Below the pieces are notes generated by a model that saw nothing but the letters and a program-made list of their open reading frames with translations, was not told the origin of the DNA and made no database searches. From Owenia fusiformis (Eukaryota; Annelida; Polychaeta; Sabellida; Oweniidae), in NCBI GenBank assembly GCA_903813345.2, contig CAIIXF020000007.1, forward strand, positions 7,881,730-7,945,729: a stretch of 64,000 nucleotides of DNA, given 5' to 3'. This document shows, piece by piece, positions 15,367 through 54,614 of this stretch. A program made the translations under genes and the position numbers. Each line of letters starts with the position of its first letter. Position 1 is the stretch's first letter.

Positions 15367-15389
15367 TTATTATTTGGGTATATTTTCAG

Positions 15390-21019: not shown

Positions 21020-21358
21020 GTAAAACTCTAGTATTCTTGCACCGATTGTTTTTAACACAATTCACATTTCACTAACTTGATTCGGTGGACTACTACTCAT
21101 GTTGTGAAACCCAATTTTAATGAATGCACAGTGACACGAATGATAGCGATTGTAATACACGAAATTATACACGAAATTGTTTCAACTTATTAATCAAATT
21201 GGGAATCCTAGAATACTATGAGAGCTGCTATATAGAGTCAAATAATTCAAAACACGGCTTTATTATTAACATCAGGCTGCTTTGTTTAACCCCCGGTTTA
21301 ACCATCATCAACCCTTGTTTCATAGTCATTCTTGATAGTCCGTGCTTTATATTTCCAG
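21020..21358 (+). other. ZNFX1 last intron
   Basis: Donor gtaaaa at 21020 and acceptor atatttccag ending at 21358. Removing it joins ...CPK-G to HIYSIGECGG in frame, restoring the conserved RZ-finger sequence. Reading through the intron gives an immediate unrelated tail and a stop at 21075. Confidence 0.92.
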
Positions 21359-25591: not shown

Positions 25592-25809
25592 AATAAATAT
25601 TTATTAACATTAATACGAATAACTAGTCTATCTCAACATATGTATAGAAATAACTATTTACAAATATGAGCATACATTCAACAATACTCGTTTATATTGC
25701 CTGATGGCGTACAGTGAAATTCGATTGAATTTTTGTTTCAATCTAAAAGTGACTGGTATATATGATATGATAAAATACTATGGTAAGCTTTTGTTATCAT
25801 GATTTGTAT
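25592..25809 (-). other. Spacer between RT-RNase H and recombinase frames
   Basis: 218 bases of AT-rich sequence separate the RT stop from the recombinase frame, with in-frame stops and no initiating ATG for the recombinase. The acceptor-like ttattttgtcag straddles its downstream (minus-strand) edge. Confidence 0.6.
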
Positions 25810-27675
25810 TCAGTAAAATACTTTAATATTTACTGGTTCCCATTGCCTCGTATCGTTTGATGACACGAACTTATAAAACTTGTCCATTTGGTCTCTACTT
25901 AACGCATCGGCTAATATATTCTTCTGTCCCTCTATATGCACGCATCTACATTCGCATTGGACTGAGGCACAATAGAAGAATAAAGCTCTGACTAGTGACA
26001 TTAAGTGTTTATTTCTGCTTGTTCCTGAGTTTACCACATGTACTATGGCTTCGTTATCACATCTGATTATAATCCTTTTCTGGCAAAGCTGTTTTCCCCA
26101 AGTAGCTATTGCTACAACAATGGCGTAAAGTTCTTTCCATGTGATATTTTGATGGGAATCTTCCTTGGCGAACGATCCTTTAAGCCAATCTCCTTGGAAA
26201 TATGCTCCATAGGATTTTTCAGATGCGTCTGTGAATAGCTTTAACTGTGTGTTCGTGGTCCATTGATCTTCGTAGAATACGGAAATCCCATTCCATCTTG
26301 GGAGATAATACAGCCACCATTGAATATCAGATCTGAACGATTTATTCAGTTTAATTTTATGATGCAGATATTTCGCTGAAGTAGATAGATCGATCATTCT
26401 TCGTAGAAACGTTCTACCACTGCGCACTAGTCTACATATAAAGTTAAGTTTTCCTATCAAAGACAGGATATCTCTTTTCGACGCTTTTTGACGATATCGC
26501 CACGCTTTAAGCTCATCTAAAATGTCCACCAATCTGTTATTTGTAATCCTCATCTCGAGAACTTCCGAGTCTATCTCGATTCCCAGAAACTCTAACTTCG
26601 ATGTTGGTAAAATAGTTTTCTTTTTGTTAACTGTGAAACCGGCATCTTCACATGTTTCTAACATAATATTCAAATTGTTATTACACATATCAGATTCAGG
26701 GGGTCCACACGTAAAATAATCATCCAAGTAATGTATACACGAACTAACGCCGTTGTTTATCATAATATATTGTAGAGCGTCCGCGAAATCTGAAAATATT
26801 CTAGGTGAACTTCTGGAACCGAACGGCAAAACTAAATCTACTATATACACCATTACTGTATCACCGCTATCCATATCGATCATTTCCCATGTCGTACCTA
26901 ATAGTTCCCAGTCAGCTTGTCTCACTGGAATATGTTTAAAAGCGTCTGCTAGGTCGATTTTACTCATCAAACTACCACGCCCATGGGCTTTAATTAGAGT
27001 TATAGCGTTGTCAACCGATACATATGAGCACGAATAATCTTCTTTTGAGATAAAATCGTTTATAGCGCCACCTGGAGGCCATGACAAATCATGTATAATC
27101 CTGTACTTTACAGGAACCGAGCGCTTTTTAGCGTATGCGCCCATCGGAGAGCCGACAAAATTAGAGAACGGTTGTGTGATAAACGGTCCTGCTTTACGAC
27201 CTATTTTCAAATCATTGAGTATATTAGCCTCCACGGCTTCACTATATGTTTGTGTTGATTTCCAATTTTTATGAATTCTTGGACCCCGAGGTCCTGTGTA
27301 GCCAAGATTAACTCCAAATGTACCACCCTGTATTATATCATTTACAAATTCACGATCCGGATGAGATTTCAACTTATTCTCGAAATATTCAACATTCAAA
27401 GGATTATAGGGACTTATCTCTGTTTTACTTTGAACAATCACATTTGGCGTATGGCAACAGGCCAACTTTGCAATTTTTGCAGACGTGTTTTCTAAAACAA
27501 CGATTTCCGAAGGTACATTCTCCAGTTTGGAATTTGTTACAAATTTCTCCACTAATATTTCCTGTGCCTTTGGGTTTCTCATTTTTCTCCGCCGTCTCCA
27601 CCTTATTCGTCTCGAGAAATGGACATTTAGACACTTGATGATCTCCTTTACACCTGTAACACTTAATGGCAACAT
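25810..27675 (-). CDS. Ngaro reverse transcriptase - RNase H polyprotein
   Basis: 621 residues from ATG 27675. The reverse transcriptase spans roughly 150-420, with RIIHDLSWP, motif A SKIDLADAF (Asp241), motif B LPFGSRSSPRIFSDF, catalytic YLDD at 316-319 and LEFLGIEID near 361-369. RNase H follows, with Asp483 (LFTDAS), Glu515 (WKELYAI), Asp540 (IRCDNE) and Asp590 (NILADALSR). The frame stops soon after RNase H, with no methyltransferase. Its start overlaps the gag frame by 251 bases in a different frame (+1), so it needs frameshifting or internal initiation. Confidence 0.94.
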   Translation of the reverse strand: MLPLSVTGVKEIIKCLNVHFSRRIRWRRRRKMRNPKAQEILVEKFVTNSKLENVPSEIVVLENTSAKIAKLACCHTPNVIVQSKTEISPYNPLNVEYFENKLKSHPDREFVNDIIQGGTFGVNLGYTGPRGPRIHKNWKSTQTYSEAVEANILNDLKIGRKAGPFITQPFSNFVGSPMGAYAKKRSVPVKYRIIHDLSWPPGGAINDFISKEDYSCSYVSVDNAITLIKAHGRGSLMSKIDLADAFKHIPVRQADWELLGTTWEMIDMDSGDTVMVYIVDLVLPFGSRSSPRIFSDFADALQYIMINNGVSSCIHYLDDYFTCGPPESDMCNNNLNIMLETCEDAGFTVNKKKTILPTSKLEFLGIEIDSEVLEMRITNNRLVDILDELKAWRYRQKASKRDILSLIGKLNFICRLVRSGRTFLRRMIDLSTSAKYLHHKIKLNKSFRSDIQWWLYYLPRWNGISVFYEDQWTTNTQLKLFTDASEKSYGAYFQGDWLKGSFAKEDSHQNITWKELYAIVVAIATWGKQLCQKRIIIRCDNEAIVHVVNSGTSRNKHLMSLVRALFFYCASVQCECRCVHIEGQKNILADALSRDQMDKFYKFVSSNDTRQWEPVNIKVFY

Positions 27676-28576
27676 GTTTGACTGCAGATGCGTCTAATAT
27701 AGTGGTATATAAGAATGTATCCAAATTACCAAACGCAAATGATTTTGCGGCCCCTAATTTCAGTCTAAAACGGATGTCATATTGTGATACAGCTGACCAT
27801 TGGAATTTCTTGTCGCATTCCTGAATGTGTGCTCTATATGTTCTCAGATCAGAATAGGCGCTGGGGTTGTGCTCCATAATAATCATTTCATAGACATTCC
27901 ATGCTGTATTCCATGATAAAAATGATTGTACTTGTGTTTGTTTGTTTTTCTTTTGTAATTTGAGTTGACCGTTATCCGAACATAATACTTGTTCATTTTG
28001 CCATTGATTGTCAACTGATTGATGATATAGGTTTGTTGGGAGCAAATCCACCAAATTCACGTACTCACCAGCAATTATTTTATTGGTAACTTTAACTGGC
28101 ACCCCCATTGTACAGCCTTCGTAGGAAACCCTATTATCGTTCACTGGTGGAATTGTATCAGGGGTTGGGTTGGATTGTTGAGGTGCATTTTGTGCTGTGG
28201 CCCCTTGTACTGGTGGAACAACCCCCATATTAGGGTCAGGGAGGTTACGCTGTTGTATTATACCCTCCATTAATTCACGAAGGTTATCCTGACCTTCTTT
28301 CAGATTTGATGTTACCATTGATAGGTTCGAAATTTGGTCATTCATTGTCATTATTGCATTAGTTATCCAAGACGCTGATGGTTGATTATCACTTACGATC
28401 TCTGATGACGTGTCAGTCGAATCTGGTGTTTCAATTTTTGACTGGGCGTTTCCCTCTGTCTGAAAATTCGTACATTTCGGGCCATACGGTCCGTTATGTC
28501 CCCTGACCGTGTTACCACAAGTGCTGCAACACCTTGGCTTAGCTCCTTGCGTTTCTATATCACTATTAGTATCCAT
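27425..28576 (-). CDS. Ngaro gag-like protein with zinc fingers
   Basis: 383 residues if translation begins at ATG 28574-28576 (MDTNSDIE); the frame itself extends to 28600 without another ATG. An N-terminal cysteine cluster (CCSTCGNTVRGHNGPYGPKC) is followed by a polar, Pro/Gln-rich stretch and a core with FLSWNTAWNVYEMI. C-terminally there is a zinc knuckle CYRCKGDHQVSKC, spaced C-x2-C-x3-H-x4-C (one residue short of the classic CCHC). A CCCH finger CNKFQTGECTFGNRCFRKH (C-x7-C-x5-C-x3-H) follows. Such fingers are known in tyrosine-recombinase retroelement gag proteins and suggest RNA binding. Confidence 0.88.
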   Translation of the reverse strand: MDTNSDIETQGAKPRCCSTCGNTVRGHNGPYGPKCTNFQTEGNAQSKIETPDSTDTSSEIVSDNQPSASWITNAIMTMNDQISNLSMVTSNLKEGQDNLRELMEGIIQQRNLPDPNMGVVPPVQGATAQNAPQQSNPTPDTIPPVNDNRVSYEGCTMGVPVKVTNKIIAGEYVNLVDLLPTNLYHQSVDNQWQNEQVLCSDNGQLKLQKKNKQTQVQSFLSWNTAWNVYEMIIMEHNPSAYSDLRTYRAHIQECDKKFQWSAVSQYDIRFRLKLGAAKSFAFGNLDTFLYTTILDASAVKHVAIKCYRCKGDHQVSKCPFLETNKVETAEKNEKPKGTGNISGEICNKFQTGECTFGNRCFRKHVCKNCKVGLLPYAKCDCSK

Positions 28577-28598
28577 TATACGGTTCTCCAAAAACTTC

Positions 28599-28726
28599 AA
28601 AAAGCTTTACTCAACTATGACTAAGTGTAAATCGAATGAACATACGCATGCGCTAATAATCAGTTATAGTAAGATAATAAAGATGTCGCTCTGCTATTAA
28701 AAACTATTTACTTTGTAAATAATCAT
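28599..28726 (-). repeat. Ngaro 5' terminal repeat A1
   Basis: 128 bp, identical to A2. It forms the 5' end of the element and presumably contains its promoter. The gag ATG lies 23 bases inside its inner edge. Confidence 0.92.
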
Positions 28727-38160: not shown

Positions 38161-39229
38161 TGAAACTATATTTTCACCTTAAATGTCTGAGATCCATGAA
38201 TGAATATTATATATACACATATGATCAGGTATATTTGTCCTGCATATTAAATGCACTTGCAAATTGTAGATATACTTCATCATTCACAGATTGCAACTGG
38301 TCACATGCCTGATATGATAGCTCTTATGTTTATCTTTACCTTATAACACCCCTACCCTTTTCAAGATTCTTACACTTAAAAGAGAGCTTCATCTGTACTC
38401 TTTGAATAAGCGATAATGCTTTGATCTCAAGTCATTTGATACAATACAACTGATATCAGCTACTTTCCATTTGAGTTGTTATGATCACGCTGATACTCTG
38501 AAATTATTAAAATATAATATCCTAATACTCGAAGAGTGTAGTTATTCCAACTTGCCTTTATGCTCCAGGGTTAATACCCTGGTCCCAAATTCTGCACTCA
38601 TTCTTTATCAGGTTGCTCAAAATAAGTGACTACTAATATTTCTCACTTAGATTTGATACAGGTTCTGGTTTATTTTGGTAATAAAGCAAATTCACACGTT
38701 ATGAAGACATCTTGAAATGTATGGTGTAAGAGATCACCATAAATAAAAGAAATCTTAAAAAATAAATAAATAGATTGATTTTGTTGTGTTTAAGAGCAGA
38801 GATTAGAGACTAAATGAGAATGTAGTTGTTCATATATTTGTGTTTCCAAATGTTAACCTTTGTGCTTTATCATCAGCTTGAATTTTTATCAAGATTTTTA
38901 ATGTTCATGTTTAGTTTGGTTAAAGGTACACTGTCATGTTTTTGTTTGAGTCTGGAGTTAAAGGTCATGTTCAGTGAACCTCACAGAATAAAGATGACAC
39001 TAAAAAGATCTAAAATATAAAAATGGTGTTCAAGAAATGTTGGTTCATTCCCAAGGGGTAATTTAGGGACATTTTGAGATGACAGAGGAGAGGGGTAATT
39101 TGATGTATTTTTCCATATATGTCATTGTTATACTGATCTGCCAAGTTTGTAAGTTTTCTTCCAGGGGGGGGGGGGGGGTCACATTGACAAATTTGGCCCA
39201 AAATCATATGAAAAATGCTCAGAATCACA

Positions 39230-39607
39230 TACCCTGCGTGCAGAGTCTAGTTAAACTACACTCTGCCTAGTAGAGACCATATTACAGTTTAGTAGCCCCA
39301 ACCCCACGACGGGTACCGGTGGCAGTTCGGGTAATAAATCACTTTTGACCTACGCGCTGACCTTTCTTCCACCAATCAGCGAGCTTGAAGAAACATATGC
39401 CAAATGCGTTCTAATTAAATATTCGCATGTCATTGGTCAATTTCGGGCTCAACGATGACGTCAGAAGGAACGACTATATATAGAACGTCGGTCAAATTTG
39501 GCCGACGAACACTGATTGGCGCGGTGAGTTCACAGGTTTATTTTAGTTTGAAAGAGTGAAGACGAAGCTCTCTTTTAAGAAGTGAAGTCAAACGAATGCA
39601 AAGGGTA
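39230..39607 (+). mobile_element. Promoter-bearing MITE-like element, copy 1, with 9-bp target duplication
   Basis: The 378-bp element has ends TACCCT...AGGGTA and is flanked by perfect 9-bp direct repeats AGAATCACA (39221-39229 and 39608-39616). Inside, in plus orientation, are a CCAAT box (39372), ATTGG (39432), a full CRE TGACGTCA (39456-39463) and TATATATA (39475-39482). About 120 bp of conserved downstream sequence ends in GG|GTAAGA, a good splice donor formed partly by the target duplication. Nine-bp duplications suggest a Mutator-like origin; the superfamily is unproven. It lies in DRAK intron 1 on the kinase's strand. Confidence 0.88.
39456..39482 (+). promoter_or_regulatory. CRE plus TATA box in element copy 1
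   Basis: TGACGTCA at 39456-39463 and TATATATA at 39475-39482, with a CCAAT box about 80 bp and an ATTGG about 20 bp upstream of the CRE. The spacing is that of a compact Pol II promoter, predicting initiation near 39505. Activity is inferred, not shown. Confidence 0.5.
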
Positions 39608-41034
39608 AGAATCACATGAAAACTGCATGATTTTGAAAGAAGTTTTTGCCAGTGCCCTCCCCTGGCTACAGGCCTGGCAGTTAATTGTTATGTTTTAAGC
39701 ATGAAGGTTATTTGTAATCAGGAATGCTATTGTCAATAACTAAGTATATTGTAAGGTTAACACGTTTTATTTTACTTAATTTGTTATTCCTCGTTAACTA
39801 TCAAAACAGTTTAGTGAATTACCTGTATTAAATATGAAAGTAATAACAGATTAAGAGGTATAATATTTCCCAATATTGTTACATGTCAAGTATACTTAGT
39901 ATAATTAGCCAATTAAAGAAGTGTCAAAACCAAGTTATTGTAAGGTATAATTATTAGATAACTAAAACAAACAACTTAATTAAAGAGAAAGCAACTGTTG
40001 CTATGAAACGATGAATCTGTTTTTGATGGTATAGACCATTGCTTTTGCTTATAACAGATTTAGCCTTTCACGTGATGATAACGTTAGTTTATATTTTGAA
40101 GTATTGTGATGATTAAATATTGATAAAATAGAAAGAATTTGGGTAATGTCCAGATTGTTTCAGCTTCATGGTCAATGTTATTGTAAATGCCAGAAAAAAG
40201 CTCTTCAAAATTACTAAATAAGTTTCCTACAAGTTGTGTTTTCAAAACATTACATTTAGATTAATTATTTAATGAAATCTGAGGGCCATTGACCAAAACC
40301 AAAAAATTATAAACAAATTAGTGTTAACAAAGAAATAAATCATAATGTAATGTGATACCCCACAAATTGAATTTGGAACTTGAAAATATTTACGTATTTT
40401 GGGTTTATGAAGAAATACAAGGATGTATATAAAAGGTTTTATACGCAACGATCGGTTTTGAAATAAATTATAGTCATAACTGAATAATTACAAGATCGTA
40501 AACAAAAACATCAACCCGTTTCACATCCATCAGTACCTTCTTCATGATATTTCCGCCTTTCATGTATCAACAATCCTTTTATGGGCAAAATATTCCCCGA
40601 TTTGAACATTTAACCTGAGGGGGTCACATGGAGTGTAACTACACCTCATTAACATGTCAAGAAATTCTAAAGAAAATAAAAAGTATTATTTTTTGTTGGT
40701 TGACTTGGATTGATTTCTGCTGGGAAATATGTGAAAAGGGGTGAATGAAAAGAATCTTAACAAAAGATATCTAAAAACCAGTCTACTCACAAAAATTATC
40801 TTATAATATTTTTTTGGAATAAATTGGATTGGTATATCAGATTAAAGTCTACATGAAGATATACTCGTAAAGATAACTGATGAGAGTATTAGCTTCCCCT
40901 GTTCATGTCATAACCTGGTTTGAGATAGAAAATTTAAAGATGCAATAATAATGCTTAATGAAAGACTAATTGACATCATATTTTTGCATTACTTGGTCAA
41001 AAGGTTTGCCAAGTCAGTTAAAAGGTTACAAACT

Positions 41035-41104
41035 CTGATTGGCTCGGTGAGATCAGAGAGTTCTTGTAAACTGAAGAATTGAAGTCGAACGAATGCAAAG
41101 GGTA
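41035..41104 (+). mobile_element. Truncated 3' end of the promoter-bearing element
   Basis: About 70 bp matching the downstream part and 3' end of the 39230 element: ctgattggctcggtgag, then gaagtcgaacgaatgcaaag and ggta. It lacks the CRE and TATA part. It may be a third, older insertion or a deletion derivative. Confidence 0.65.
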
Positions 41105-42294
41105 AACTATTTTGGAGTTACCTACTGCATTAAATTTTTTTGACTGTCTTCAATCTTTATGCTTGAACTATTTTTATGGTGTTATCATATTCAATTATGT
41201 GTCAAATGTCCAGGTTTTGTAACAACTTATAAAAAACAAAAATTGACTGGTTGCAGATTTCCTGTTATAAAAACAAGTCGTGCAAGAAGTTTGTTTGTTT
41301 GTGTCTGTAAAATATCAAAGATAACTCAGTAAGAGAGTGAACTCCAAAATTCCAGACACTCTAATATTAGAGGTACAGCCCCTCCAGAAGTGTGGAAACT
41401 GAAGGTCCCCACTAGAAAGCATTGTAGTTCATGTTTAAGGTAGTGAACATTTATGTTGATAAGGTAGATCCACATGCTGAGAATTTTCTAGAATAAAATT
41501 AAAAACAATAAATGAAACCTAATATAGTATTTTGCATATATAGATATTTATACAGTATGGTAGAATGCATTGTTCAAAATCAAAATATTTCAATTAAAGT
41601 GTTGAAATGTTTATTTCAAACTTATTTTGAAAATGTCAAACTACCTCAAAAGTCAAAACTGATTTTTATTCCTGTAGTCCTGTAGTCAGTGTAGTATTAG
41701 GATGGATGAAGTGTGAATTTATTAAAAATGCCAAACATAAACAAAACAAGCTTTAACCGATGGCTTAAAATGTCATCTACCAGTTGCCAAACTTTTTGTG
41801 GGGGTGTATAATGCGAAAAAGGAAAAATGAGTTTCTTTACAGAAATAGACATGTGCTTACCTGTCTGTTTTTACTAATGTAACAACTTCCCACCATTTGT
41901 CATCTTGAAAACATTACTTAGATTAAGGTACATTAGTCTGAGTAAGATATATTAGAAAAATACCTGTATTATAGTTTACAATGACTGGCTTTCAAGAATT
42001 TGTCAAATAGAATCATTTTTTCACTTCAGTGATGGATGATCTCTTGTGTATGATTCATATTTTGTGTATTATGTATACAATATCTGATGTATCATTTTAC
42101 CTTGTTTTTGTGTTGTAAAATCATGAAAATATTTACTCCGTAGCATACAAAATTATAGTCTTGCTTTTAGTCCCTGTAACCCGCTTATACCCCTCGTAGT
42201 AAGGGGGTCAGTTATAAGACTCCTAGAAGACAATAATGTACTGGTACATTCATTATATTAAGCATTTTACTCATCTCTATTTATCTATTTACAG

Positions 42295-42507
42295 AGGAAA
42301 GTTTGCAGTCGTGAAACTATGCAGTCACAGAGATACTGGGTACAAGTTTGCCGCAAAATTCTTGAAAAAGCGACGTCGTGGCAAAGACTGCCGGGAGGTT
42401 ATCTTACAAGAAATTGTCATGCTAGAAATGGCGCTGGTTCATCCGAGGTTGATTGATCTTGTTGAAGTCTATGAGACACGTCATGAGATCGTCCTCATCA
42501 CAGAATA
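42295..42507 (+). CDS. DRAK/STK17-like kinase exon, N-lobe
   Basis: Acceptor tatctatttacag, donor gtacgt, phase 2 at entry and phase 2 at exit. It codes GKFAVVKLC, the ATP-anchoring lysine in AAKFLKKRRRG, the helix C glutamate in VILQEIVMLEMA, and VYETRHEIVLITE followed by the first two bases of tyrosine. The K-F-L-K-K-R-R-R-G-x-D-C-R string is characteristic of STK17A/B. An in-frame TAG just after the donor shows that the reading frame must be spliced here. Confidence 0.94.
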
Positions 42508-45500
42508 GTACGTAAAGTTTCCTTATCAATTCTACCAAAAAAAAGTAATAGGAATATTTGTCTGAGTTGATTGGCCTTTTAGAACAAATACAATATAAAT
42601 GTTTCTTTCGCTAGTTCTGTAAAAAGTCATTTGAAAAAATTATTTTGAAAGTCGTGAAATTTTGTCAAGCTTGTAACTTAGAGCTACCTTATACTTCAGC
42701 AATATCTGAGCATACTTGGACCAATATGTATTATACAAATACTATCATAATGATGTTTGGTTAAATATGATTCAAAGTGTAATTTTCACTTTGAAGTTCA
42801 GTTCGAAAATGTCCACTTAGCCCATTCTACTTGAACACATTTACAGTATGTCCAAGGTTACTAAAACATAATAAAGGTTGTACTTGTTAATAACATGCTG
42901 TTATTTATAACCAATTAAATCAGAAAGTAACTTTTATTAATTGCTCAATCATATCCAATTTCTATATTCAGCATATACTCTACCAGTCAAAAAATGTCAT
43001 GTAACAAGCTGATTTTGCCTGTTTCTCTGTAGTTTACAATGGGAATAACTGATTTTTAGCGTTTCTGTACAATTTGGTAGATTTGCTCCTTGGCTGTTTA
43101 TTTTATACTTTGTTAATTCTATACTCTTCATTTTATTTTGCAATTATGGAGTATGACCATGATGATATTTTTCTCTTGGGGCAATAACATCACAGTATAG
43201 AGGGATCATATTGAGCTTATTGAATAAATTATCAAATACTCATTTCAATTAAATCAATATATTTCCCTGAAAATGCCCAAATCAAAGTGTATTTTCCTCA
43301 TAAATGCAGAGAAATTCCAAGGAATTTGTGTTTTGCCTTTTCTCATCCTTGTTTGTAGATTGTAATTGTATATGTTGTTTATTTATAAATACACTAATTT
43401 GATGAAAACAAATGGAATTCTTTTTGGTACTTCAAACTTTTTGCAAGGTTTATCACTTGGCCTTTCCCTGCCCCTTGACTTTACCCTCACCTTTGCTACT
43501 CCAGGCATGAGGAATGTAACGTTGTGGTTTTTGAAATGAAACACAGGGTGCAAAATAAGCATGAAGTAAACCAGTTATTTTATGGAGAGGTTTAAAAGAA
43601 AACTTCAGAAATGCATATACTTTTCATCTTTACTACCATAAAAATGCATCTTATTTCTACAAAATAAATAAAATGTACGGTGATCAGGAACCAGAAATAG
43701 CTATTTGCCCCTAACACTTAATTTCCTGACTCATTAAACTATATTCCTGTCCATTTTTCAAATTAACACTCAAAATAAATTGTTTTGTCAAAAATACCAC
43801 CAAACATGAAAGTATGATGACCATTGGTATTACACTTTCCCAGTGATTCAATTTCACTTCATTAAAAGAGGTTTTCATCTTACTAAGAGTTTATGGGTTT
43901 TAGGATATATAAAAATGGTCTTCTGGATCTCTGCTATGTGTGCTCTTAAACTGACCATTGAGCTCTTTTGGCAATTCTCATTATTCATTACCAGGTGATG
44001 ATAACCAGACTGAAGTGATATCAATACTTCTAGAGCAACCCATCAATTTACCTAGTTCTCTAGCTGGAATTGGGATAAGTAAATATGTCAGTTATCAGAC
44101 CCATAGTCCCAGACTCAATGATTGCATTTAGATAGAGGCCAAATGTAAAAATGGGCCACTTTTGGGAATTGATTGTTGGAAAATGTCTGTTTTCAGTTTT
44201 GGTTTTCCATTAAAAGGCGATGATTCTTTGGCAACCTGATCTTCCCCTGAAATCTTTGCATGCTATGAAGGGCTGCCTATGAATGATAACAAGACTATGA
44301 TTATCTAAAATAAAAGTTTGGCTCAATATTTCAAATCATTCCTTCATTTGTTCTTAATCTGCACTGTCTTTATTATTTAAAATGCCCATAAAGGGGTGGT
44401 CTGTTTCTTTTCCCACTTCCATCAAATTCTTTGGTTCTGTATTTTGTACATGTTGACACCTGACACATTATAGATTTCATCCCCATATGGTATCAATGTA
44501 TGTCAATACCTCTACAGGAATGATAAATCTGCTGAAAGTACAGAGATTGGAGCTTTGAATAGAGAAGACATTCTCCAATCTCCATTACAGAGCTTTATAG
44601 ACTAATCTCCCCTCTGCGGTTGGTATTGAATACATAAGAGGATAGAAAGGGAGATTGAGATGATGAAATTATTTGTTGATAACCTTACCTGTTTCATTTT
44701 CTCACATCAAAGTGGTTGCCTTGGTGTATCATTTCATGCTGTATTTCTCCCTGATTAGCCTGTGGTATGTTGGATATTGAGATGAGACTAAGAATGTGTT
44801 ATTGATAAATAGGTAGGGACAGTCAGGCTCATTCTGACATACTATATATAGTCTGGCTTCACCCCTTGTGATTCTAGTCTTGCTACAAGTCCTTGTGATT
44901 CTAGTCTAGCTACAAGCCCATGTGATTCTAGTCTTGCAACAAGCCCATGTGATTCTAGTCTTGCTACAAGCCCATATGATTCTAGTCTTGCTACAAGCCC
45001 ATGATTCTAGTCTTGCTACAAGCCCTTGTGATTCTAGTCTTGCTACAAGCCCTTGTGATTCTAGTCTAGCTACAAGCCCATGTGATTCTAGTCTTGCTAC
45101 AAGCCCTTGTGATTCTAGTCTTGCTACAAGCCCTTGTGATTCTAGTCTAGCTACAAGCCCTTGTGATTCTAGTCTAGCTACCAGCCCTTGTGATTCTAGT
45201 CTTGCTACAAGCCCATGTGATTCTAGTCTTGCTACAAGCCCTTGTGATTCTAGTCTTGCTACAAGCCCTTATGCACCTACTTATGAAGTGGATAAAAGGG
45301 GGAGAAGGTTCCAGTCTTGAAGCAAGACTATTGTGGTTTCATCTCATTCTTTCTAGAGCACAAATTATCTGGTGAAATATCTATTATTATGGGGGAGGAC
45401 AGATGGAGGGTATCAACCATAGATTTGAATTTTTCAACTGTTTCCATCTTTAAATGATAATTTTGCCTACTGTTTTCATTAATTTTGCCGATATTTGTCA

Positions 45501-47363
45501 GAAATTCTAATGAAAATCCTACATATCTGTTCAGATGATATGCAAGCTTGCTGTAATACCTGCCTGAAATATTTGCCAGAAACACAATCGATCAAATCTA
45601 AATTAAACCAATACATACTTACTCTAAAGCTGGGATCACTGGAATTAAGAATCAATTAGATTTATCATTTGATTCAGTTGGTAATTATTTTACAACATGG
45701 GTTGATTTCTCCCAGTACTTAAATCTGGACTCAAAAAACTAATTTGCATTTTTTAATTGAAAAACATTTTCAAGTTCAAGATAAGATTTATTTTATGAGC
45801 ATATTGATCAAATAAGGAAGTACGTCAGGTGGTTTGTGTAAGGTGTGTAAAACAGAGATAAATCTTCGTTATTGTTTCCTCGTTCAATTCTGATGTCTCA
45901 ACGTCACCACTTTAACATGTAAACTATGCACCTAAAGCAAACTATGCAAAAACTTTTTGTAAAAAATGAACAAAAATGTTTGAGCACGAAATAGAAGCAC
46001 AAAACTATTCTAAATCTTTCAGTTCGCTTAGGGCATTCCCATAAACCTTCAATATGTCAACATTTTCATATTTCTGGCATATATTTTAAAGGACATTATC
46101 ATCATTATCTCTTTTTAGAGTTTGAATGGCGAGAATGGCGATGGCTTGTGCATTTATAGGTTTTAGGTTTTCAATGTCACATTCTGTGGCATGCTCCCAG
46201 TTCAATAGGTTGGTACAAGGGGATGCTAACCTGTCAATTCTCTGTATTCCTTTTGTAGCAAAATAGCACCCATTCTTTGTTGAAAACTTTAATTGAAGCC
46301 CTGGATGTTCTTCATTTCAATGTGCTTTAAGTGTGCTCAAAGTGATATTTCTCTTTTACATGTGTTATCCTTGAGTTTTGAGCATAAAGGGATGTATTTT
46401 TGTGTTATTTTATTTTCAGTTATCCGTCATAGCGTAATCAGCCAAATATTTTTCATACATCAAATTGCAGTTTCAGTGATTTAGTGCGTGACTCCTAAAT
46501 GAAACTGTCGGCCTGAATCCAAAAACATTTTGTCATCATGTAACTCCATTCTTTATCAAAATTACAAATCTGTATAGTTTTATTGTGAAGATTGCTTATT
46601 GAGTGTGATGTTTTTATTCATTAATTATTTTTTATTTTGTGTAATTTCAATGAAGCTTTAACACAAGATTGAGAAAGTAATTTATTGTCGTTGAACTGTG
46701 TTTTACCTTTATTTCAGCTACATTTCCTGTATTTTATGGAGAAACAAATGTTTATGATTTGAAAAGTGGAGAATCTATTGCTATTAATGTTTTTAACATT
46801 ACAGTGTTGCACGTGTACTCTTGTTTTCATTTTTTCTTAAAAAGACATATTATTTTGCACCTAGAGATCTGTATTACCTTCAGTTCGGTGACTCCAAAAG
46901 GTAAACTTTTCAATTTCAAATTTGTTCAAGGCACGAATTGCCAACTTCAATATTAACTTGGGGTTACCCCTCTATTTATAAAGAGCACTAAATCGCACAT
47001 TCCAATTTCTTTCTGTTCTTCAAAAATGCCTTTATCTTGCATGTTTTTGCACTTATTTTACAATACAAATTTTGTTTTTATGGGTAGCAGTTTTATTAAC
47101 TAAAAGTTAATGAAATTGAAATTTTTCAAAAAGAAATTCTCACTTTCACAAAATAATGAGGGAGGGAGGGAGGGAGAGGCATAATATTAATAATAATTAT
47201 TTGTTAAATTACATTTACAGGAAAGGCTATAGAATGTTACAAACACAGTAAGGAAAAGAAGCATCTGAGAACATAGCCATTCAAAAGAAAAACAAACCCC
47301 ACTATCCCAAACTATTATTGTATGATTTCAAATGATTAACAAAATGATGATATTGTGTTCCAG
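42508..47363 (+). other. DRAK intron 2 (4.9 kb)
   Basis: AT-rich intron carrying the 27-bp minisatellite at 44865-45270 and a GGGA-rich run near 47159-47177. No exon is recognised. Confidence 0.8.
44865..45270 (+). repeat. 27-bp minisatellite with open frame
   Basis: About 15 tandem copies of a 27-bp unit containing gattctagtcttgctacaag followed by cccttgt, with one unit shortened by 3 bp. All lengths stay multiples of three, so one frame is open throughout and reads the nonamer DSSLATSPC. A second frame reads MILVLLQAH-type repeats. There is no splice evidence around it, and it lies in intron 2 of the kinase gene. Confidence 0.93.
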
Positions 47364-47502
47364 TGCTGCTGGTGGGGAACTATTTCATCAGTGTGTGGTG
47401 GAGGAATCCTTTCGAGAAAGAGATGTGATTAGGCTGATGAGGCAGATTTTAGAAGGCCTGATATTCCTCCACGACAGAAATATAGTCCACTTGGATTTAA
47501 AG
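47364..47502 (+). CDS. DRAK/STK17-like kinase exon, hinge to catalytic loop
   Basis: Acceptor gtgttccag; first base t completes the tyrosine (ta|t), giving E-Y-A-A-G-G-E-L-F as in DRAK hinge regions. It continues RDVIRLMRQILEGLIFLHD and ends NIVHLDLK, whose Asp is the catalytic base, at donor gtaagc in phase 0. HLDLK in place of HRDLK is the DAPK/DRAK form. The next exon should begin P-Q-N-I-L-L and carry DFG; I could not find it before 64000, so the gene continues beyond the window. Confidence 0.94.
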
Positions 47503-48778
47503 GTAAGCCATTGAATGTGTAAGTCATCTTATAAACAAAGCCTGTCAGAATGAGTATAACAACAGAGATTTTCATGCAGGTTACAAATTGTAGTCTTGTA
47601 TCAATCCCCCCCATTCCTCCAGGTGATAGTGAATTGGGGATGCTTTTGTAGATGGTCTTGATTCAAGACTACAAATTGTTAAAAACCAAAAACAGACATT
47701 TTCAAACCTGGTTCTTTTTAGTATCAAAATGGCTTACCTATACCACAGGAGGAGCAAATTACAAGAAAATTGAATTAGTTTTAGTGTGTACTATCCAAGT
47801 CATAAGTGTCAAAACTCATCAATGGGATTACAAACTGTGGAGTAAAATAAAAGAAACAGGATAAAAAATGTGCTCAAATTGGACCACCTAAGCCACCCTT
47901 GACACATGGGTGGTATGAGTTTGTTTAGAATGAGTGCTATATTGTTTTGGTCAGCAAGTTAATTTAATTAGACACATGTATCACATAAATTGTCAGCTCA
48001 ACTGTTTGCCTTATCAGGTAGCCTGATTAAGTAGAGGGATGGAAATAGAGGAACGAATTACCCTGTTGACTGCTATATGTAGCTGTATATGCTTCAAAAT
48101 GTCAAATTGAGTTGAAAAATTGCATCAATTTACTCTTACCTACCCCTGGATATTTATTTTGATATTGTTTCAAGAGCATTTTTTGGAAAACACTTCACAA
48201 ACACTTAAATACTTAAGAAATACTTAATTATTAATTTTTTATGATTAAAATCACTAGGTATTTAGTCCTGGAGTCTCATTGGCTTGTTCTATGAAGACAG
48301 GTCAAAATGAGTTTACAGCTTTATTTACATGTAGTCCTGTATTGGGTCATTGAGATAAAGCATTTATACATATTTTTTGAATTGTTTTAAAAGTATTGCG
48401 ATGTTGAACACATGGAAAGATGCAGTTTTTCATATTCTCCATTGGGTGAAAATAGATTTTCAAATGAGTGCACAAATTTTTGAAAAATGCATTAAAGATT
48501 CTAATAGGTGCAACATAATTTTAGTGAGATTCCTGTGTAGGATAAGCATGTAATATTGATATCCCACCAAACAGCACACAGTTATTACACCATTGTCCTG
48601 GTAAAGCTTGTTTACTAGCAGGATTACCTGATAGCAAAAGTCTCAGATCAACTTTTCAATTAAAATCCTATTTTTGACAAATTCCATTAATTATCTGGCA
48701 CAGTGCTACATAAGAACTTTATTCTATTACATCATATAGCTAATATGGGATAAGGCTAATGGTAAATAATTATTGTTA

Positions 48779-49611
48779 CAATCAAATTTTTTATTCTGTC
48801 AATCAGTTCATATGGTTAGAATAAGGAAAGAATGTGATGTAACCACATGTCTACTTACTAGCTTGTTCTATGTCATCCATCGGACTAGGTTACATCGTGG
48901 AACGCAGCCAAACATGACACTGAAGGCAGTATTCTGAGGTAATAAAATCTAAATTTAAATAATTTCCCATTTGCAGCCCCTTGGAGATTTCCGGAATTGA
49001 ACAAAGTAGCGAACGTTGCGATCTTTCAACTTTAGTTCGTTGTTTTTTCACCACCTTATGTGTACTGTTTTCATTTAGGAGGCGGTCTTATTTGAATGCA
49101 TCATTACAGGTCTTTATGAATCAATAGATCAATAAACAGCTCAAAAAATACAATTTAGCAGTTTCTTTCATTGCGTACTGCGCATGTTAGGCACGAAAAC
49201 AATTTAGCAGTTTCGTTCGTTGCGTAATTGGGCCTTCTATAATCAGTAGCAAATGCTCGGAAAACATTTTCCAAAATATTTACTTCCGTTTTCCTTGAAG
49301 ACATGATTGGGTGACACGTCATTGACACGTGATTAAGTCACATGATCGATACAGTAACTAGTCACGTGATCAGACATGTGTCACGTGTCAGTCACGTGAG
49401 CTTGCAAAATGGACGATCTAAATTTCCAAAAATTCGGCTAAGATCAAGATAGATATGCTGTTGCCTTCAGCGTCCTGTTCGGCTGCGTTCCACGATGTAA
49501 CCTAGTCCGATGGATGACATAGAACAAGCCGGTAAGTAGACACGTGGTTACATCACATTCTTTCCTTATTCTAACCATATGAACTGATTGACAGAATAAA
49601 AAATTTGATTG
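48779..49611. mobile_element. TA-flanked element with 131-bp inverted repeats and E-box cluster
   Basis: The left arm 48779-48909 and right arm 49481-49611 are inverted copies with only a few differences (caatcaaattttttattctg at each end). TA borders both ends, as in Tc1/mariner-type insertion. The 570-bp centre has no transposase but contains four perfect CACGTG boxes at 49326, 49363, 49382 and 49393. Confidence 0.87.
49326..49398. promoter_or_regulatory. Cluster of four CACGTG E-boxes
   Basis: CACGTG occurs at 49326-49331, 49363-49368, 49382-49387 and 49393-49398, two of them in the GTCACGTGA context preferred by USF/MITF-TFE type bHLH-ZIP factors. Related CACATG and CACGTC sites lie between. 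Function is inferred only from motif density. Confidence 0.45.
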
Positions 49612-51419
49612 TAAGAGTGATTTTGTTCATTGGGGAAACTGAACTATACATAGTAAAACCTGTGTATATTGAACATTTTTTGCTGAGAAAAAATGTTCAG
49701 TGTTGGTAGGTGTTCACTACAGAGAAGGTAATTTATACAGAAGTCAGTTCAGAGTTTATGCGGGGTAAGAGTGTTCATTAAAGTAAGGTGTTCACTAAGA
49801 CAAGTTTTACTGTACATGTATACATGTATTTCTCATTACCCTTTTCCATGGCCTTAATATCCCCAGGATTCGGGAGGATGTTGTTTTTTTGGAATTGTCG
49901 CTTGTCATGTTCATCTGAAAGAAAACAATGGTTTTAGAGTCACCATAAGTTATGATTGGAGTTGTACCAAAAACACACTTAGACACACTTTTGGAACAAT
50001 CTTTCTCACTCTAGATAAAAATTAGATCTATCAATTAGCAATTTTAGCCTCTCGTTACTACAACTGATTCTACAGATTTGATGCTGACAGGATCTCCATG
50101 ATCTCTAATGGTTCTTTGATGTCCTTTAATTGGGGATTTTTATTGTGAAATTGAATGTTGATGAGATTGAGCTCTTGTGAAGGTTAAGTACACCAATTTG
50201 GCTTAATAAACAAGAGAGTGTTGCCAACTCTTGACTAAGATGCTAAGTTAATTAGAAATTACTTAATTAAAGGAAGAGATAAGAGAAAAAATCCCAACAA
50301 TTTTTTTACTGAGAATTGAGTTATGTAAGATATGTATACATGTACATACTGTAGTCAAGTCATCATACACTTTAGTACAGTTCACATAGCCCGCGGGGAA
50401 AAAATGAACACATTTAGCTGACATCATAATGTCACATTATGGACTTCAACCAAACTTTTTTTGTCTTGTGGTCAGATTTCATTAGAGAACATCTATCATA
50501 TATTATGTATATTTTTATCTAATATCTATAAATACAATTTGAACTGTAATAATAACATCTCTATAGGTTGTATTTATAGTTTCATGTGACGAAAAGTGCA
50601 TTCGGTGCTTGATCCTTTTTTGGTATTTATATGTTGTAGTTTTGTAAACTTACATATGATAACATATTATGTAAAGTAGCCAAAGGCATTGCAGACATAT
50701 TAGAGAATACTTTCAAAGCACATATCAATCAAGCCTTTGGCCTATGGACTACATTATGAGTATTTCTTGATCCCAATTACATGTACCAATCAGATTTAAT
50801 GAAATAGACAGTACCTATGATCATTTTAGTTATGTTTACAATTTATTTAGTTCAATATAAAGTTTTGTCTTTATAGACTATGTTGAAATTACATTTCCTC
50901 AAATTAATTTATCAATTTTTTATGAAGTTGCAGATCTACCTTAACATGAAGCCTTATTTCTGGGGCATTTTCTGAAATGGATGTAGAATTCTCAGTTTAC
51001 TTGTTCTGATTTAGAAACAACTTAAGGTTTCATAATTGTTGAGATGGCAACTTCAGAATCCAAGCTGGACCGTGTTTGTTTAGGTCATATATTACCTTGT
51101 GAGTGGGCACAGGTGATAACATCTTTGAAGTATTGAGAAGCTTTACATATGAGACAGAAGTCTTTTCTTAGTGATCTTTATGAGACAGCAAAATGTGGTT
51201 CATTCCTCCATATTTCATTTTAATTGATTTAATGGGGACATCCCAAGTATTTCTTCGAGAATCACATCCTTTAATGAATAAGTTTTATTTTATGATGGAC
51301 ATTGACTTTTCATGCTAATGCTTCCAGGTCTAAATTATAAACTTGGCATCAAAAATAGGGTTTCAAAGCACTAATCAGATATGACTATTACTGTTCGTCT
51401 CTCACAAGTGGCCACATAT

Positions 51420-51535
51420 TGTTGTAGTTTCCAACTTTTTTGTGGCGGCGGATGGTGTTTGGTGGTTGATATTCAGAGTTTGTTGTCTATAACAAATGGC
51501 AGGTGGTGCAATTTTGCATTTTAGTGCCTAATGTT
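51420..51535 (+). repeat. Dispersed repeat family 1, copy
   Basis: ttgttgtagtttccaacttt, then ttttgtggcggcggatggtg, and tataacaaatggcaggtggt with ttttgcattttagtgcc. Moderately diverged. Confidence 0.7.
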
Positions 51536-51904
51536 CAGATGTGTTATTCTCTGGACTAATAAAGATGGTTTCTGAAAAACTGTTTGGTCTGATTGTGGCA
51601 TTCTGGGTAAACATGTTATGTGTTTTGTTAACCATGATGCATAATATGTCAGAAAATGACTGACAGAAGAATGTTGGTTTATTTTGAAACTTTCCATTTT
51701 TACCCATGTACCATATATCTTACATAATGCAAGCAGGAAATTATTAAGCACAAGATAAGCCTTTGTATGAGTACATATAGTACATTTAGGGCAGCTGGTT
51801 TGCCTCAAGAGGGTGGGCGTGTGGCTAATTAAGTATCATAATGCACATTTATATCAAATAACTTTTTATAAGAAATGGTTTAGGAGTCCAGAATGATTAA
51901 TATA

Positions 51905-52098
51905 TGAGGGTTGATCCAAAAGTTCTGCACTGTTTGCTCTAAATGGTCCTATGTTGCTGTGTTAATGGTCAAATTTTTTACTTAATTTTTACACAAAATG
52001 ATACTATTTATAAGGTGGATGAGGCCATATATTAACAATATTCATAAAATATTAAGATTTTTAGAGCAAACAGTGCAGAACTTTTGGATCGACCCTTG
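51905..52098. mobile_element. 194-bp TA-flanked MITE
   Basis: Inverted termini of about 38 bp (gatccaaaagttctgcactg, then tttgctctaaa, inward from each side), with TA at both borders (51903-51904 and 52099-52100). Typical of mariner-derived MITEs. It lies in DRAK intron 3. Confidence 0.88.
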
Positions 52099-52424
52099 TA
52101 TATCCAATGGTTGTTTGGATATTATATATTATAAGCAAGATATATTTTGGCTCCCAGTGTTAGTTCCACTCCCACTTCATGATGTTGTATTTGTTATAGC
52201 TGAGTTATACAATCTTCCCCCCTCCCCCCAGATCCTGTGTGTTCTTTTTAAAGGCAAGAATTGGCTTATCACAAGGGACATGATGCAAGACTATCATTTT
52301 CTAATTGTACTCTGGTGAAAGGCAATAAGCAGGGTGGAACAGGGTTGTTATAGAAAGCAGTCCATGCCCTTCATAAGTTTTATCTAACATAAACACAAGT
52401 TATCAGTGAGGGTGTGGGTTATGC

Positions 52425-52795
52425 TACCCTGCGTGCAGAGTCTAGTTAAACTACACTCTGCCTAGTAGAGACCATATTACAGTTTAGTAGCCCCGCCCCC
52501 ACGACGGGTACCGATGACAGTTTGGGTAAATCACTTTTGACCTACACGCTGATTTTCCACCAGTCAGCGAGCTTGAAGAAACATACGCCAAATGTGTTCT
52601 AATTAAATATGCGCATGTCATTGGTCAATTCCGAACTCAACGATGACGTCAGAAGGAATGACCATATAAAGAACGTCGGTCAAATTTGGCCGACGAACAC
52701 TGATTGGCGCGGTGAGTTCACAGGTTTATTTTAGTTTGAAAGAGTGAAGACGAAGCTCTCTTTTAAGAGGTGAAGTCAAACTAATGCAAAGGGTA
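52425..52795 (+). mobile_element. Promoter-bearing MITE-like element, copy 2, with 9-bp target duplication
   Basis: 371 bp, highly similar to 39230-39607 over its full length, with the same TACCCT...AGGGTA ends. It is flanked by a different perfect 9-bp repeat, GGGTTATGC (52416-52424 and 52796-52804), which proves independent insertion. ATTGG, TGACGTCA (52644-52651) and TATAAA (52665-52670) are kept; the upstream CCAAT has changed to CCAGT. Its terminal donor reads GTAGGG and is weaker than in copy 1. It lies in DRAK intron 3 on the kinase's strand. Confidence 0.88.
52644..52670 (+). promoter_or_regulatory. CRE plus TATA box in element copy 2
   Basis: TGACGTCA at 52644-52651 and TATAAA at 52665-52670, conserved while the surrounding bases carry substitutions. 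The TATA variant differs from copy 1 yet remains a functional-type box. Confidence 0.5.
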
Positions 52796-54614
52796 GGGTT
52801 ATGCCATTGTCTGTTGATATTTTACTGCCCATGGTTAGCTAACTATATATGTCATGTTGACAGCTGATGACACAAACATGGCACTTGTTGCTCTGTGGGC
52901 TCTGTGACTTGTCAAGTAATGTACATACCAGGATAACTTTCAAAATCTTGGCTTGCACAAGGAAACATTTTTAAAAGTTTTTTCAAAGATTGATGACCAT
53001 TTTTCTAAGAAGGACTATTCTAGGTATATTTTGGAGGGGTGAAAATGGAATAGGTCTTGGCTTAGAAACATTTTTGGGCTCAGGGGCCCCTATGACTGCC
53101 AGAACAGCTATTCTAACATTACCCTTATATGCAAATAGCATTGTGGAATCCCATTAATAATTTCACATATCCATCAACAGTTTCTTTTGAATAATATTAA
53201 TCAATATAGAAGTTCCAATTATAGCATTCCAAATTTTCTATCACATTCCTCAAGTTCAACATCCCATATCAGTTCAAATATCTGTTTCAATTATGATTTT
53301 GTTCAGACCATAGAAGCATTATCCTTTGCACATTCCTGGCAGTTATGTCTAGTTTCCATGCATTCTGGTTTTTATGAGCCATGAAAACATTGAGGAATTT
53401 GCTAAATTGATTATTTGTGGCCGCCCAGCCTGATGATTTTACTGATTTATGTAGCCTTACATTATTGACCACCCCATAACAGATCTGACAACAAACAGGA
53501 CCACTTAGCTGCTAGACACACTTGTCATGTTAAGTTGAGGGGTTGTATCATGAGCCAGATCACTTCTTAAAGAAAAAAATTAATTAGCCTTTTCCTTTAT
53601 TATCCCAGGGTTTGTTTTTGGGAGGATTGTAACCTACGATTCCAGAAAAACCATTGCCTGCTTTTTGACGAACACTGTGTAACCAAAATATAAGTTGCGA
53701 CAGTTCAAAAAAGTTGCCTCATAATAAATGTGAGGATGAAGTTCTCTTTTAGTGAAGTGAAATGGATTATCCATTTCTGCTATTCCCTTACTGGAAGACT
53801 GAGGTATTAGACATTTGATATGTTAACCAATCAAGAAAATTGTATAACTGTTACAGTGACTTAATTTTTTTCTTTTCTGAATTATCGTGATTTAAAATTA
53901 AAGAATCTTTTAGTATAAAAGAAAAACTTATTTTTTAAGAATGAAGTTATTAAAGAAGTAGATTCCTGTTATTTTTATAGCAATTTTTATCATGGTAATT
54001 GGATCATTTGATTGCTAAAAAGCATTGGATAAATGGGATGAAGAAATAACATTAGGTATTTTGTCTTGATTTTACTTACCTCAATTTACTTGGGGGATAT
54101 GTCTATACCATATAAATCAATTTGAGCATTTTTGGAAATGTTTTCAACTGTTGATGTCCCCATTTCGACATTTTCAAAGAAATACTTCAGAGTTTATGGT
54201 TATTTTATAATTTTGTTTACTTTAAATCATCTTATCTGAGTATGCTTTTATATTTTCTTATCAGAGCTTTTGTTTTTTTTATTCTCGAATTATAGAGGTA
54301 CCTGGTTCTGGAAGAAAATCAAACAGGATGTTATGAAACTGTAATCACATTTTAATTGGTTCTATCTTAAGATATGGAGACATTGTACCTGAAGGATATC
54401 TTGAGTATAATACTGTATTAAGTGCCACAGTCAGGTGAATGCCTGGGGAATATTGTTGAGATGTCATTGCTATCTTCAGCACTTAGACTCTTGATATTAG
54501 CATAACAGTTTTGTTTATGCATTTTATCATTACTGTCTCATATATGTTTCAGGTCAATTTCATCAACCTGAGTTACCTTTATTGACCATGATGTTTATTG
54601 CAATGATATTGTAA

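What the first reader, a model, noticed from the sequence alone, without database searches (positions are those of the whole stretch)
39230..52804. A mobile element that carries a compact Pol II promoter and half a splice donor, inserted twice in sense in one kinase gene
Copies at 39230-39607 and 52425-52795 share the ends TACCCT...AGGGTA but have different perfect 9-bp target duplications (AGAATCACA and GGGTTATGC), so they inserted independently. Both keep ATTGG, TGACGTCA and a TATA box in promoter order on the strand of the DRAK gene. The 3' end supplies GGGTA, and in copy 1 the duplicated target completes GTAAGA, a good donor. Insertion could therefore create an alternative first exon upstream of the kinase exons. 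From intron 3 it could yield an N-terminally truncated transcript. I infer the activity; the structure is seen directly.
Basis: partly seen in the sequence, partly recalled or inferred. Interest (0 to 1): 0.75.

Follow-up and report, generated by a model that had tools for sequence, protein, structure and literature searches.

The report
Transposon leaving hundreds of uniform scars
The two insertions are ordinary members of a very abundant short DNA transposon, but about half of that family survives only as tiny scars broken at the same two internal points and rejoined in many different ways, which makes this genome a natural archive of how DNA breaks left by a jumping element were repaired.

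Summary
In detail: 39230-39607 and 52425-52795 are copies of one element with different perfect 9-bp target duplications. The left-end pattern has 4,452 matches in the 498-Mb genome, so two in 64 kb is unremarkable (P about 0.11). The promoter and donor reading is weak: an older subfamily lacks the CRE (0 of 19), a terminal GTAAG forms at 4 of 79 sites, the exon's ATG is out of frame, and copy 2 lies after the catalytic-loop exon. The surprise is elsewhere in the family. Beside 970 intact left borders there are 889 stub joints. Fetched stubs (58; 48-95 bp) keep at most about the left 31 and right 51 bp, usually within intact duplications, and lack the 296-bp core. Breaks pile up at CA^CTCT and AGAG^TG; joints are diverse (52 sequences in 93 listed). 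I read stubs as end-joined excision scars of a transposase that cuts the non-transferred strand far inside each end, as P elements do at 17 nt, here about 31 and 51 nt. No helper transposase with these ends was found, and interrupted gap repair is not excluded.

The parts
39230..39607 (+). element copy 1, 378 bp, intact form
   Evidence: TACCCT...AGGGTA, 9-bp TSD
39221..39229 (.). left target duplication AGAATCACA, copy 1
39608..39616 (.). right target duplication AGAATCACA, copy 1
39240..39266 (+). near-perfect palindrome GCAGAGTCTAGTT-A-AACTACACTCTGC (element 11-37)
   Evidence: read directly; minus-strand self-match 11-37 at 88.9% in other copies
39230..39260 (+). left segment kept by stubs (element 1-31); left break falls after 39260 (CA^CTCT)
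39261..39556 (+). 296-bp core removed in stubs; holds the promoter-like motifs
39557..39607 (+). right segment kept by stubs (element 328-378); right break falls before 39557 (AGAG^TG)
39372..39379 (+). CCAATCAG, conserved also in the old subfamily
39456..39463 (+). CRE-like TGACGTCA; 28 of 32 young copies, 0 of 19 old
39475..39482 (+). TATA-like TATATATA
39523..39529 (+). internal donor-like GGTGAGT; 26 of 32 young copies, 0 of 19 old
52425..52795 (+). element copy 2, 371 bp, intact form; CACTCT once per strand as in copy 1
52416..52424 (.). left target duplication GGGTTATGC, copy 2
52796..52804 (.). right target duplication GGGTTATGC, copy 2
42295..42507 (+). STK17/DRAK-like kinase exon (glycine loop to LITE)
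   Evidence: limits by eye
47364..47502 (+). kinase exon ending HLDLK, taken as the next DRAK exon
   Evidence: by eye, not searched against a library

Best explanation
The window copies are intact members of a short non-autonomous cut-and-paste DNA transposon family (9-bp target duplication, TACCCT/AGGGTA ends, conserved ends of about 60 bp). When an intact copy leaves, its transposase cuts the transferred strands at the outer ends but the non-transferred strands deep inside, at a CTCT-type motif facing inward (CA^CTCT in the young subfamily), about 31 nt from the left end and 51 nt from the right end. The donor site therefore keeps the two terminal segments, which the host joins end to end with small losses, microhomology or filler, leaving a short stub between the old 9-bp duplications. 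Stubs lack the inner part of the conserved ends and probably cannot move again. SHOWN: the two forms, the sharp breakpoints, joint diversity, intact duplications at most stubs, no free core among the hits inspected. INFERRED: that a staggered excision makes the breaks, which strand is cut, that stubs are immobile, and the enzyme.
For: With 17 fixed bases each and no mismatch, 889 stub joints and 970 intact left borders genome-wide, controls 0; intact right borders 898. In 58 stubs fetched through their outer ends, the left segment ends at or before position 31 in 52; three end at 32, two (one lineage) at 33, and one at 35 with 4 nt of microhomology. The right segment starts at or after 328 in 57 of 58; the exception, at 326, has 6 nt of microhomology. 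In both window copies CACTCT occurs once per strand, exactly at the two break sites and in mirror orientation; the same once-per-strand count holds in 29 of 32 young copies. Of 58 stubs, 43 have a perfect 9-bp duplication and 8 have one mismatch. Joints: 93 listed after removing a 7-copy hitchhiking lineage, 52 distinct, 33 with filler. Intact borders: 100 of 100 listed at the left and 100 of 100 at the right have unaltered spacing, so one-ended cutting leaves little trace. Core-left pattern on C1 up to 30.64 Mb: 43 of 44 hits have the left arm attached; the 44th has its right end at the expected distance and its left side was not read. Element 1-60 and 320-378 are conserved in the old subfamily (0.89-0.99) against 0.66 for the core, so the break sites sit inside the conserved ends. 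One stub, L044, has the old-type left end and by eye breaks at the same place. [quoted passage not shown]
Against: No transposase with matching ends was found: 5 MULE loci and 7 P-type loci, of 8 and 11 hits, were fetched (8-10 kb each) and none shows this element's ends around the gene; ends beyond the fetched stretch are not excluded, notably for L126 and L127. A stagger of 31 and 51 nt would be larger than any I know. The P superfamily duplication is 8 bp in the passages read, not 9. The CACTCT motif is not universal: 17 of 19 old copies have none on the + strand, the left site reading mostly ACC^CTCT. Two of 51 aligned intact copies have a small indel close to a break site (L074 left, L102 right), which could be one-ended scars. 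Two copies of intermediate length exist (L003, 250 bp; L049, 169 bp), as interrupted repair synthesis would also give. No population data show an intact copy turning into a stub at one site.
Confidence: 0.48

Rival explanations
1. Interrupted gap repair: the whole element is cut out at its outer ends, repair copies inward from both sides of the sister template, stops early, and the unfinished ends are joined. The stops are fixed by a barrier, for example transposase bound to the inner motifs.
For: A known explanation of internal deletions (papers holding the term listed; mechanism recalled). Explains intact duplications, diverse joints, filler, absence of a free core, and the intermediate copies L003 and L049.
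Against: Deletion breakpoints from this process are usually scattered (recalled); here the inner limits are sharp at both ends in 58 stubs and only 2 intermediate copies were fetched. It needs an added barrier at both inner motifs.
Confidence: 0.26
2. The core is a second, nested transposon or a nuclease target, removed by separate double-strand cuts at CA^CTCT and AGAG^TG.
For: Mirror-image CACTCT...AGAGTG borders and footprint-like joints; two of 51 aligned intact copies have a small indel close to one break site.
Against: The core was not seen outside the outer element in the 44 hits inspected (with 5, 9, 18, 22, 28); no altered spacing in 100 plus 100 listed intact borders; inner inverted repeat only about 6 bp.
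Confidence: 0.13
3. Stubs arise at the target: two short pre-cut ends held by transposase integrate together with a 9-bp stagger and the gap between them is then joined.
For: Explains duplications and varied joints equally well; nothing here separates donor from target sites. No call.
Against: Needs both ends to be severed from the core before integration, with no reason for a roughly 1:1 ratio.
Confidence: 0.08
4. One reading: a promoter and donor carrying element that gives the DRAK gene alternative first exons.
For: Motifs in promoter order in both copies; CRE block above core background in the young subfamily; CCAATCAG and a TATA-like box partly conserved in the old one.
Against: CRE and GGTGAGT absent in 19 of 19 old copies; terminal donor formed at 4 of 79 sites; out of frame from copy 1; copy 2 follows the HLDLK exon.
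Confidence: 0.05

Closest known systems
P element superfamily (Drosophila P, zebrafish Pdre/THAP9)
   Same: Documented long staggered cleavage (17 nt; PMC7776569, passages), end-joining at the donor (same passages), subterminal repeats (PMC10983969, passages); P-type transposase domains occur in this genome (11 hits).
   Different: 9-bp rather than 8-bp duplication; retained ends of 31 and 51 nt; TACCCT ends; none of the 7 P-type loci fetched (of 11 hits) shows these ends.
Mutator-like (MULE) MITEs
   Same: 9-bp duplication, high copy number, no coding capacity (family traits recalled).
   Different: Only about 6 bp of terminal inverted repeat; 5 of 8 MULE loci inspected do not show these ends around the gene.
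Internally deleted DNA transposons (Ac/Ds, MuDR, mariner; abortive gap repair)
   Same: Deletion between retained ends with filler and microhomology (recalled).
   Different: Sharp, shared breakpoints with many different joints, instead of scattered breakpoints (comparison recalled).

Membership tests
non-autonomous DNA transposon (MITE) | many dispersed copies with fixed ends and constant-length target duplication | tested here: met
   4452 left-end matches; 79 distinct sites with perfect 9-bp duplication, and the tenth base agrees in 19 of 79, as by chance
non-autonomous DNA transposon (MITE) | no coding capacity | tested here: met
   no ORF of 90 aa or more overlaps either window copy
P element superfamily | 8-bp target duplication | tested here: not met
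   9 bp at 79 sites
P element superfamily | helper transposase with P-type domains and the same ends | tested here: inconclusive
   11 domain hits; 7 loci of about 10 kb fetched, none showing these ends; 4 hits not fetched, and ends could lie beyond the stretches
P element superfamily | long staggered cleavage leaving terminal segments at the donor | tested here: inconclusive
   scars fit it; cleavage itself cannot be seen
Mutator (MULE) | 8-11 bp, usually 9-bp, target duplication (recalled) | tested here: met
Mutator (MULE) | MULE transposase carrying the same ends | tested here: inconclusive
   8 hits, 5 loci of about 8 kb fetched, none with these ends around the gene; 3 hits not fetched
Merlin | IS1595-type transposase with the same ends | tested here: inconclusive
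   4 weak partial hits, loci not fetched
solo LTR | TG...CA ends and 4-6 bp duplication (recalled) | tested here: not met
   TACCCT...AGGGTA and 9 bp

The most novel reading that the evidence does not exclude
A cut-and-paste transposase with a very long, asymmetric stagger (about 31 nt left, 51 nt right) set by an inward-facing CTCT motif at each end. Its donor scars form a genome-wide record of about 900 or more germline break repairs, and the stub to intact ratio (889 to 970) measures how often donors were lost to end joining rather than restored, roughly 48 to 52 under a simple model.
Probability: 0.4. Interest if true: 0.75.

Novelty: new variant of a known kind. Interest (0 to 1): 0.6.

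Why it matters
Excision scars are usually a few bases long, rare, and studied one at a time (recalled). Here hundreds of scars with fixed break positions and diverse joints lie in one reference genome, most of those fetched beside an intact target duplication. They can be read as a natural library of end-joining in an animal germline, and the ratio of scars to intact copies bears on an old question: how a cut-and-paste element without a replicative step can still multiply.

Tried and rejected
Helper search: MULE, P-type and IS1595/Merlin domains; 12 loci read for matching ends, none found around a gene (L085 merely contains a stub). The Merlin hits were not followed. Long copies as possible autonomous elements: L001 is an intact copy with an unrelated insertion of about 1.06 kb (CAGGG...CCCTG); L042 and L052 are truncated copies with no right end and no ORF over 109 aa in 8.5 and 6.6 kb. 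Reading the 1477-bp pair in L002 as one element: rejected, it is two separate stubs. Splicing as the source of stubs: rejected, because joints vary and carry filler. Palindrome-loop cleavage: considered; it predicts left breaks near position 17 as well, which were not seen in 58 stubs. RAG-like cleavage before CAC: would make position 29 the common left limit, but 31 is commonest (22 of 58). A microhomology excess holds per copy (40 of 60 filler-free against 0.47 expected) but not per distinct joint (11 of 23), so I claim none. Because of the re-check I lowered the main odds from 0.50 to 0.48, raised interrupted gap repair to 0.26 and the nested-core rival to 0.13. Literature: searches (listings and starts of abstracts; no paper found) showed me no family described as having this two-form structure; only passages of PMC7776569 and PMC10983969 were read. 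I guessed the annelid Owenia for one search; no call confirms the species.
Full report
Observation. The left-end 21-mer with up to 3 mismatches has 4,452 matches, 2,203 and 2,249 by strand, against control counts of 0 and 2; the right-end 20-mer has 5,616, controls 16 and 14. At that density 0.57 copies are expected in 64 kb and two or more occur with P=0.11; another copy within 13.2 kb on either side in the same orientation has P about 0.105. One search also shows a copy split by another: pieces 1-174, 1-378 and 166-378 lie end to end, so a 9-bp duplication can be read from a nested insertion.

Insertion chemistry. Of the sites fetched, 79 with distinct flanks have a perfect 9-bp duplication, and the next base agrees in 19 of 79, as by chance. 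Outside the duplication a symmetric preference is visible: G is 3% at the third base to the left and C is 5% at the third base to the right. This is typical of a DDE-type cut-and-paste transposase (established knowledge).

The two forms. Pairing the listed left and right ends on C1 (first 30.6 Mb, exact matches) gave two length classes. I fetched 129 loci in all; they were chosen from listings, not at random, and intact copies were under-sampled. With both ends recognisable, one search counts 33 copies of about window length, 19 of an older subfamily (of 22 such loci; L105, L112 and L113 lacked a recognisable end), 58 stubs of 48-95 bp, and 2 intermediates (169 and 250 bp). One of the 33, L096, proved on re-check to have only left 1-19 and right 332-378 around 295 bp of unrelated sequence, so 32 are true intact copies. 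Left out as lacking an end or carrying an insertion: L001, L042, L051, L052, L088, L089, L093 and the second stub of L002. Duplications are perfect in 28 of 32, 10 of 19 and 43 of 58 (L096 is not among the perfect ones). Genome-wide, with 17 fixed bases each and no mismatch, there are 889 stub joints and 970 intact left borders, controls 0. The stub figure is probably low, since the pattern misses larger losses and long filler.

Break positions. The joint pattern cannot see segments longer than its gap allows, so sharpness is judged only from the 58 stubs fetched through their outer ends. The left segment ends at or before 31 in 52 of 58, with a peak of 22 at 31. Three end at 32; two end at 33 and belong to one lineage; one ends at 35 with 4 nt of microhomology. 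Three stubs counted as ending at 20-22 (L044, L059, L099) carry an altered palindrome centre and by eye reach about the usual point. The right segment starts at or after 328 in 57 of 58; the exception starts at 326 with 6 nt of microhomology. In the young subfamily the break sites read CTACA^CTCTGCC and, on the other strand from the right end, CTTCA^CTCTTTC. CACTCT occurs once on each strand in both window copies, exactly there, and once on each strand in 29 of 32 young copies. A 13-base window match this good (9 or better) occurs in 27 of 11,664 position pairs. In the old subfamily the left site mostly reads ACC^CTCT: 17 of 19 have no CACTCT on the + strand, while 18 of 19 keep it on the other.

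Joints. Of 100 listed joints, 7 belong to one stub carried inside another repeat: that flank with up to 3 mismatches has 92 matches, a few of the weakest perhaps other sites, and all 7 lie at it. Two further pairs are local duplications (L004, L010) and were left in. In the remaining 93 there are 52 different joints, 33 of 93 with 1-10 nt of filler; of the 60 without filler, 40 have 1-2 nt of microhomology (expected 0.47 of joins), but of 23 distinct filler-free joints only 11 do. Some identical joints recur at different sites, as microhomology would favour; limited movement of stubs is not excluded. By contrast all 100 listed intact left borders (of 970) have the same 6-nt spacing and all 100 listed right borders (of 898) the same 10-nt spacing. 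The left pattern could show deletions only; the right one deletions of up to 10 nt and insertions of up to 4. Against this, among 51 aligned intact copies (32 young, 19 old) L074 has a small indel just inside the left break site and L102 a 2-nt insertion at the right one, so one-ended scars may occur but are uncommon.

The core is not mobile alone in the hits inspected. Of 44 hits of the core's left edge on C1 up to 30.64 Mb (1,445 genome-wide with up to 3 mismatches), 43 have the left arm attached, by comparison; the remaining one, at 9,381,968, has the right end at the expected distance and its left side was not read.

Conservation and the promoter question. Against window copy 1, the old subfamily matches at 0.89 in 1-31, 0.90 in 32-60, 0.99 in 320-327 and 0.93 in 328-378, but 0.66 over the core. 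So the ends needed for movement probably extend past the break sites, which would make stubs immobile; this fits their varied joints. In the core, CCAATCAG is conserved (0.95) and a TATA-like box is kept in 12 of 19, whereas the perfect CRE (28 of 32 young) and GGTGAGT (26 of 32 young) are in 0 of 19 old copies. Within the young copies the CRE block is at 0.98 against 0.91 for the core. A promoter inherited from an autonomous ancestor is plausible; the perfect CRE and donor are features of the young subfamily. The AGGGTA end gives GTAAG at 4 of 79 sites. In the kinase gene, copy 1 is 2.7 kb upstream of the exon at 42295, whose phase (A|GGA AAG) does not fit the ATG CAA AGG of the proposed exon; copy 2 follows the exon ending HLDLK (by eye).

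Mechanism. A single scheme covers intact insertions with full ends and donors that keep terminal segments with sharp inner limits: strand-specific cuts at different depths. P elements do this with 17 nt (PMC7776569, passages). Here the depths would be about 31 and 51 nt. L096 could be a scar that captured foreign DNA during joining, or a later insertion; I did not follow it. Interrupted gap repair with a barrier is the main rival and is not excluded. Under the simplest cut-and-paste bookkeeping, where each move adds one intact copy and turns its donor into a stub with probability 1-h, the ratio gives h near 0.52; this assumes no loss and no counting bias, and is an inference.

Limits. No helper was found, no second individual is available, G000 counts may be incomplete, listings of patterns are capped at 100 and drawn from C1 (and C2), and no RNA data were used.

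Noticed in passing
L096:60-420 (+): A copy with this family's outer ends (left 1-19, right 332-378) and a near-perfect duplication, but 295 bp of unrelated sequence between them: a scar that captured DNA, or another element sharing the ends.
   Followed up: partly
window 24635-28606 (-): Three long minus-strand ORFs that look like tyrosine recombinase, reverse transcriptase and a zinc-knuckle protein, as in a DIRS-type retrotransposon (judged by eye).
   Followed up: no
window 15355-21075 (+): A 1906-aa open frame with helicase-like and NFX1-type zinc-finger-like sequence, resembling ZNFX1 (judged by eye).
   Followed up: no
window 44906-45268: Tandem repeat open in both directions with a short repeated peptide (SQGLVARLE on the minus strand).
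   Followed up: no
window 45601-45680 (-): Sub-threshold Rfam match to SNORD105 (28.6 bits, gathering 45, E 0.013).
   Followed up: no
L017, L019, L059: One stub lineage is carried inside another dispersed repeat; its flank plus left end has 92 matches genome-wide with up to 3 mismatches.
   Followed up: partly
L001:101-1547 (-): An intact copy interrupted by an insertion of about 1.06 kb with CAGGGTTCGAA...TTCGAACCCTG ends.
   Followed up: no
L059, L099 (left ends): Some stubs have an enlarged palindrome centre (CTACATGTAGTTAAACTA), suggesting hairpin-related change at the left end.
   Followed up: no
L126, L127: P-type transposase-like sequence inside a segment of more than 9 kb that is 98-99% identical at two places; hits with equal 125-aa frames lie at two more.
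   Followed up: partly
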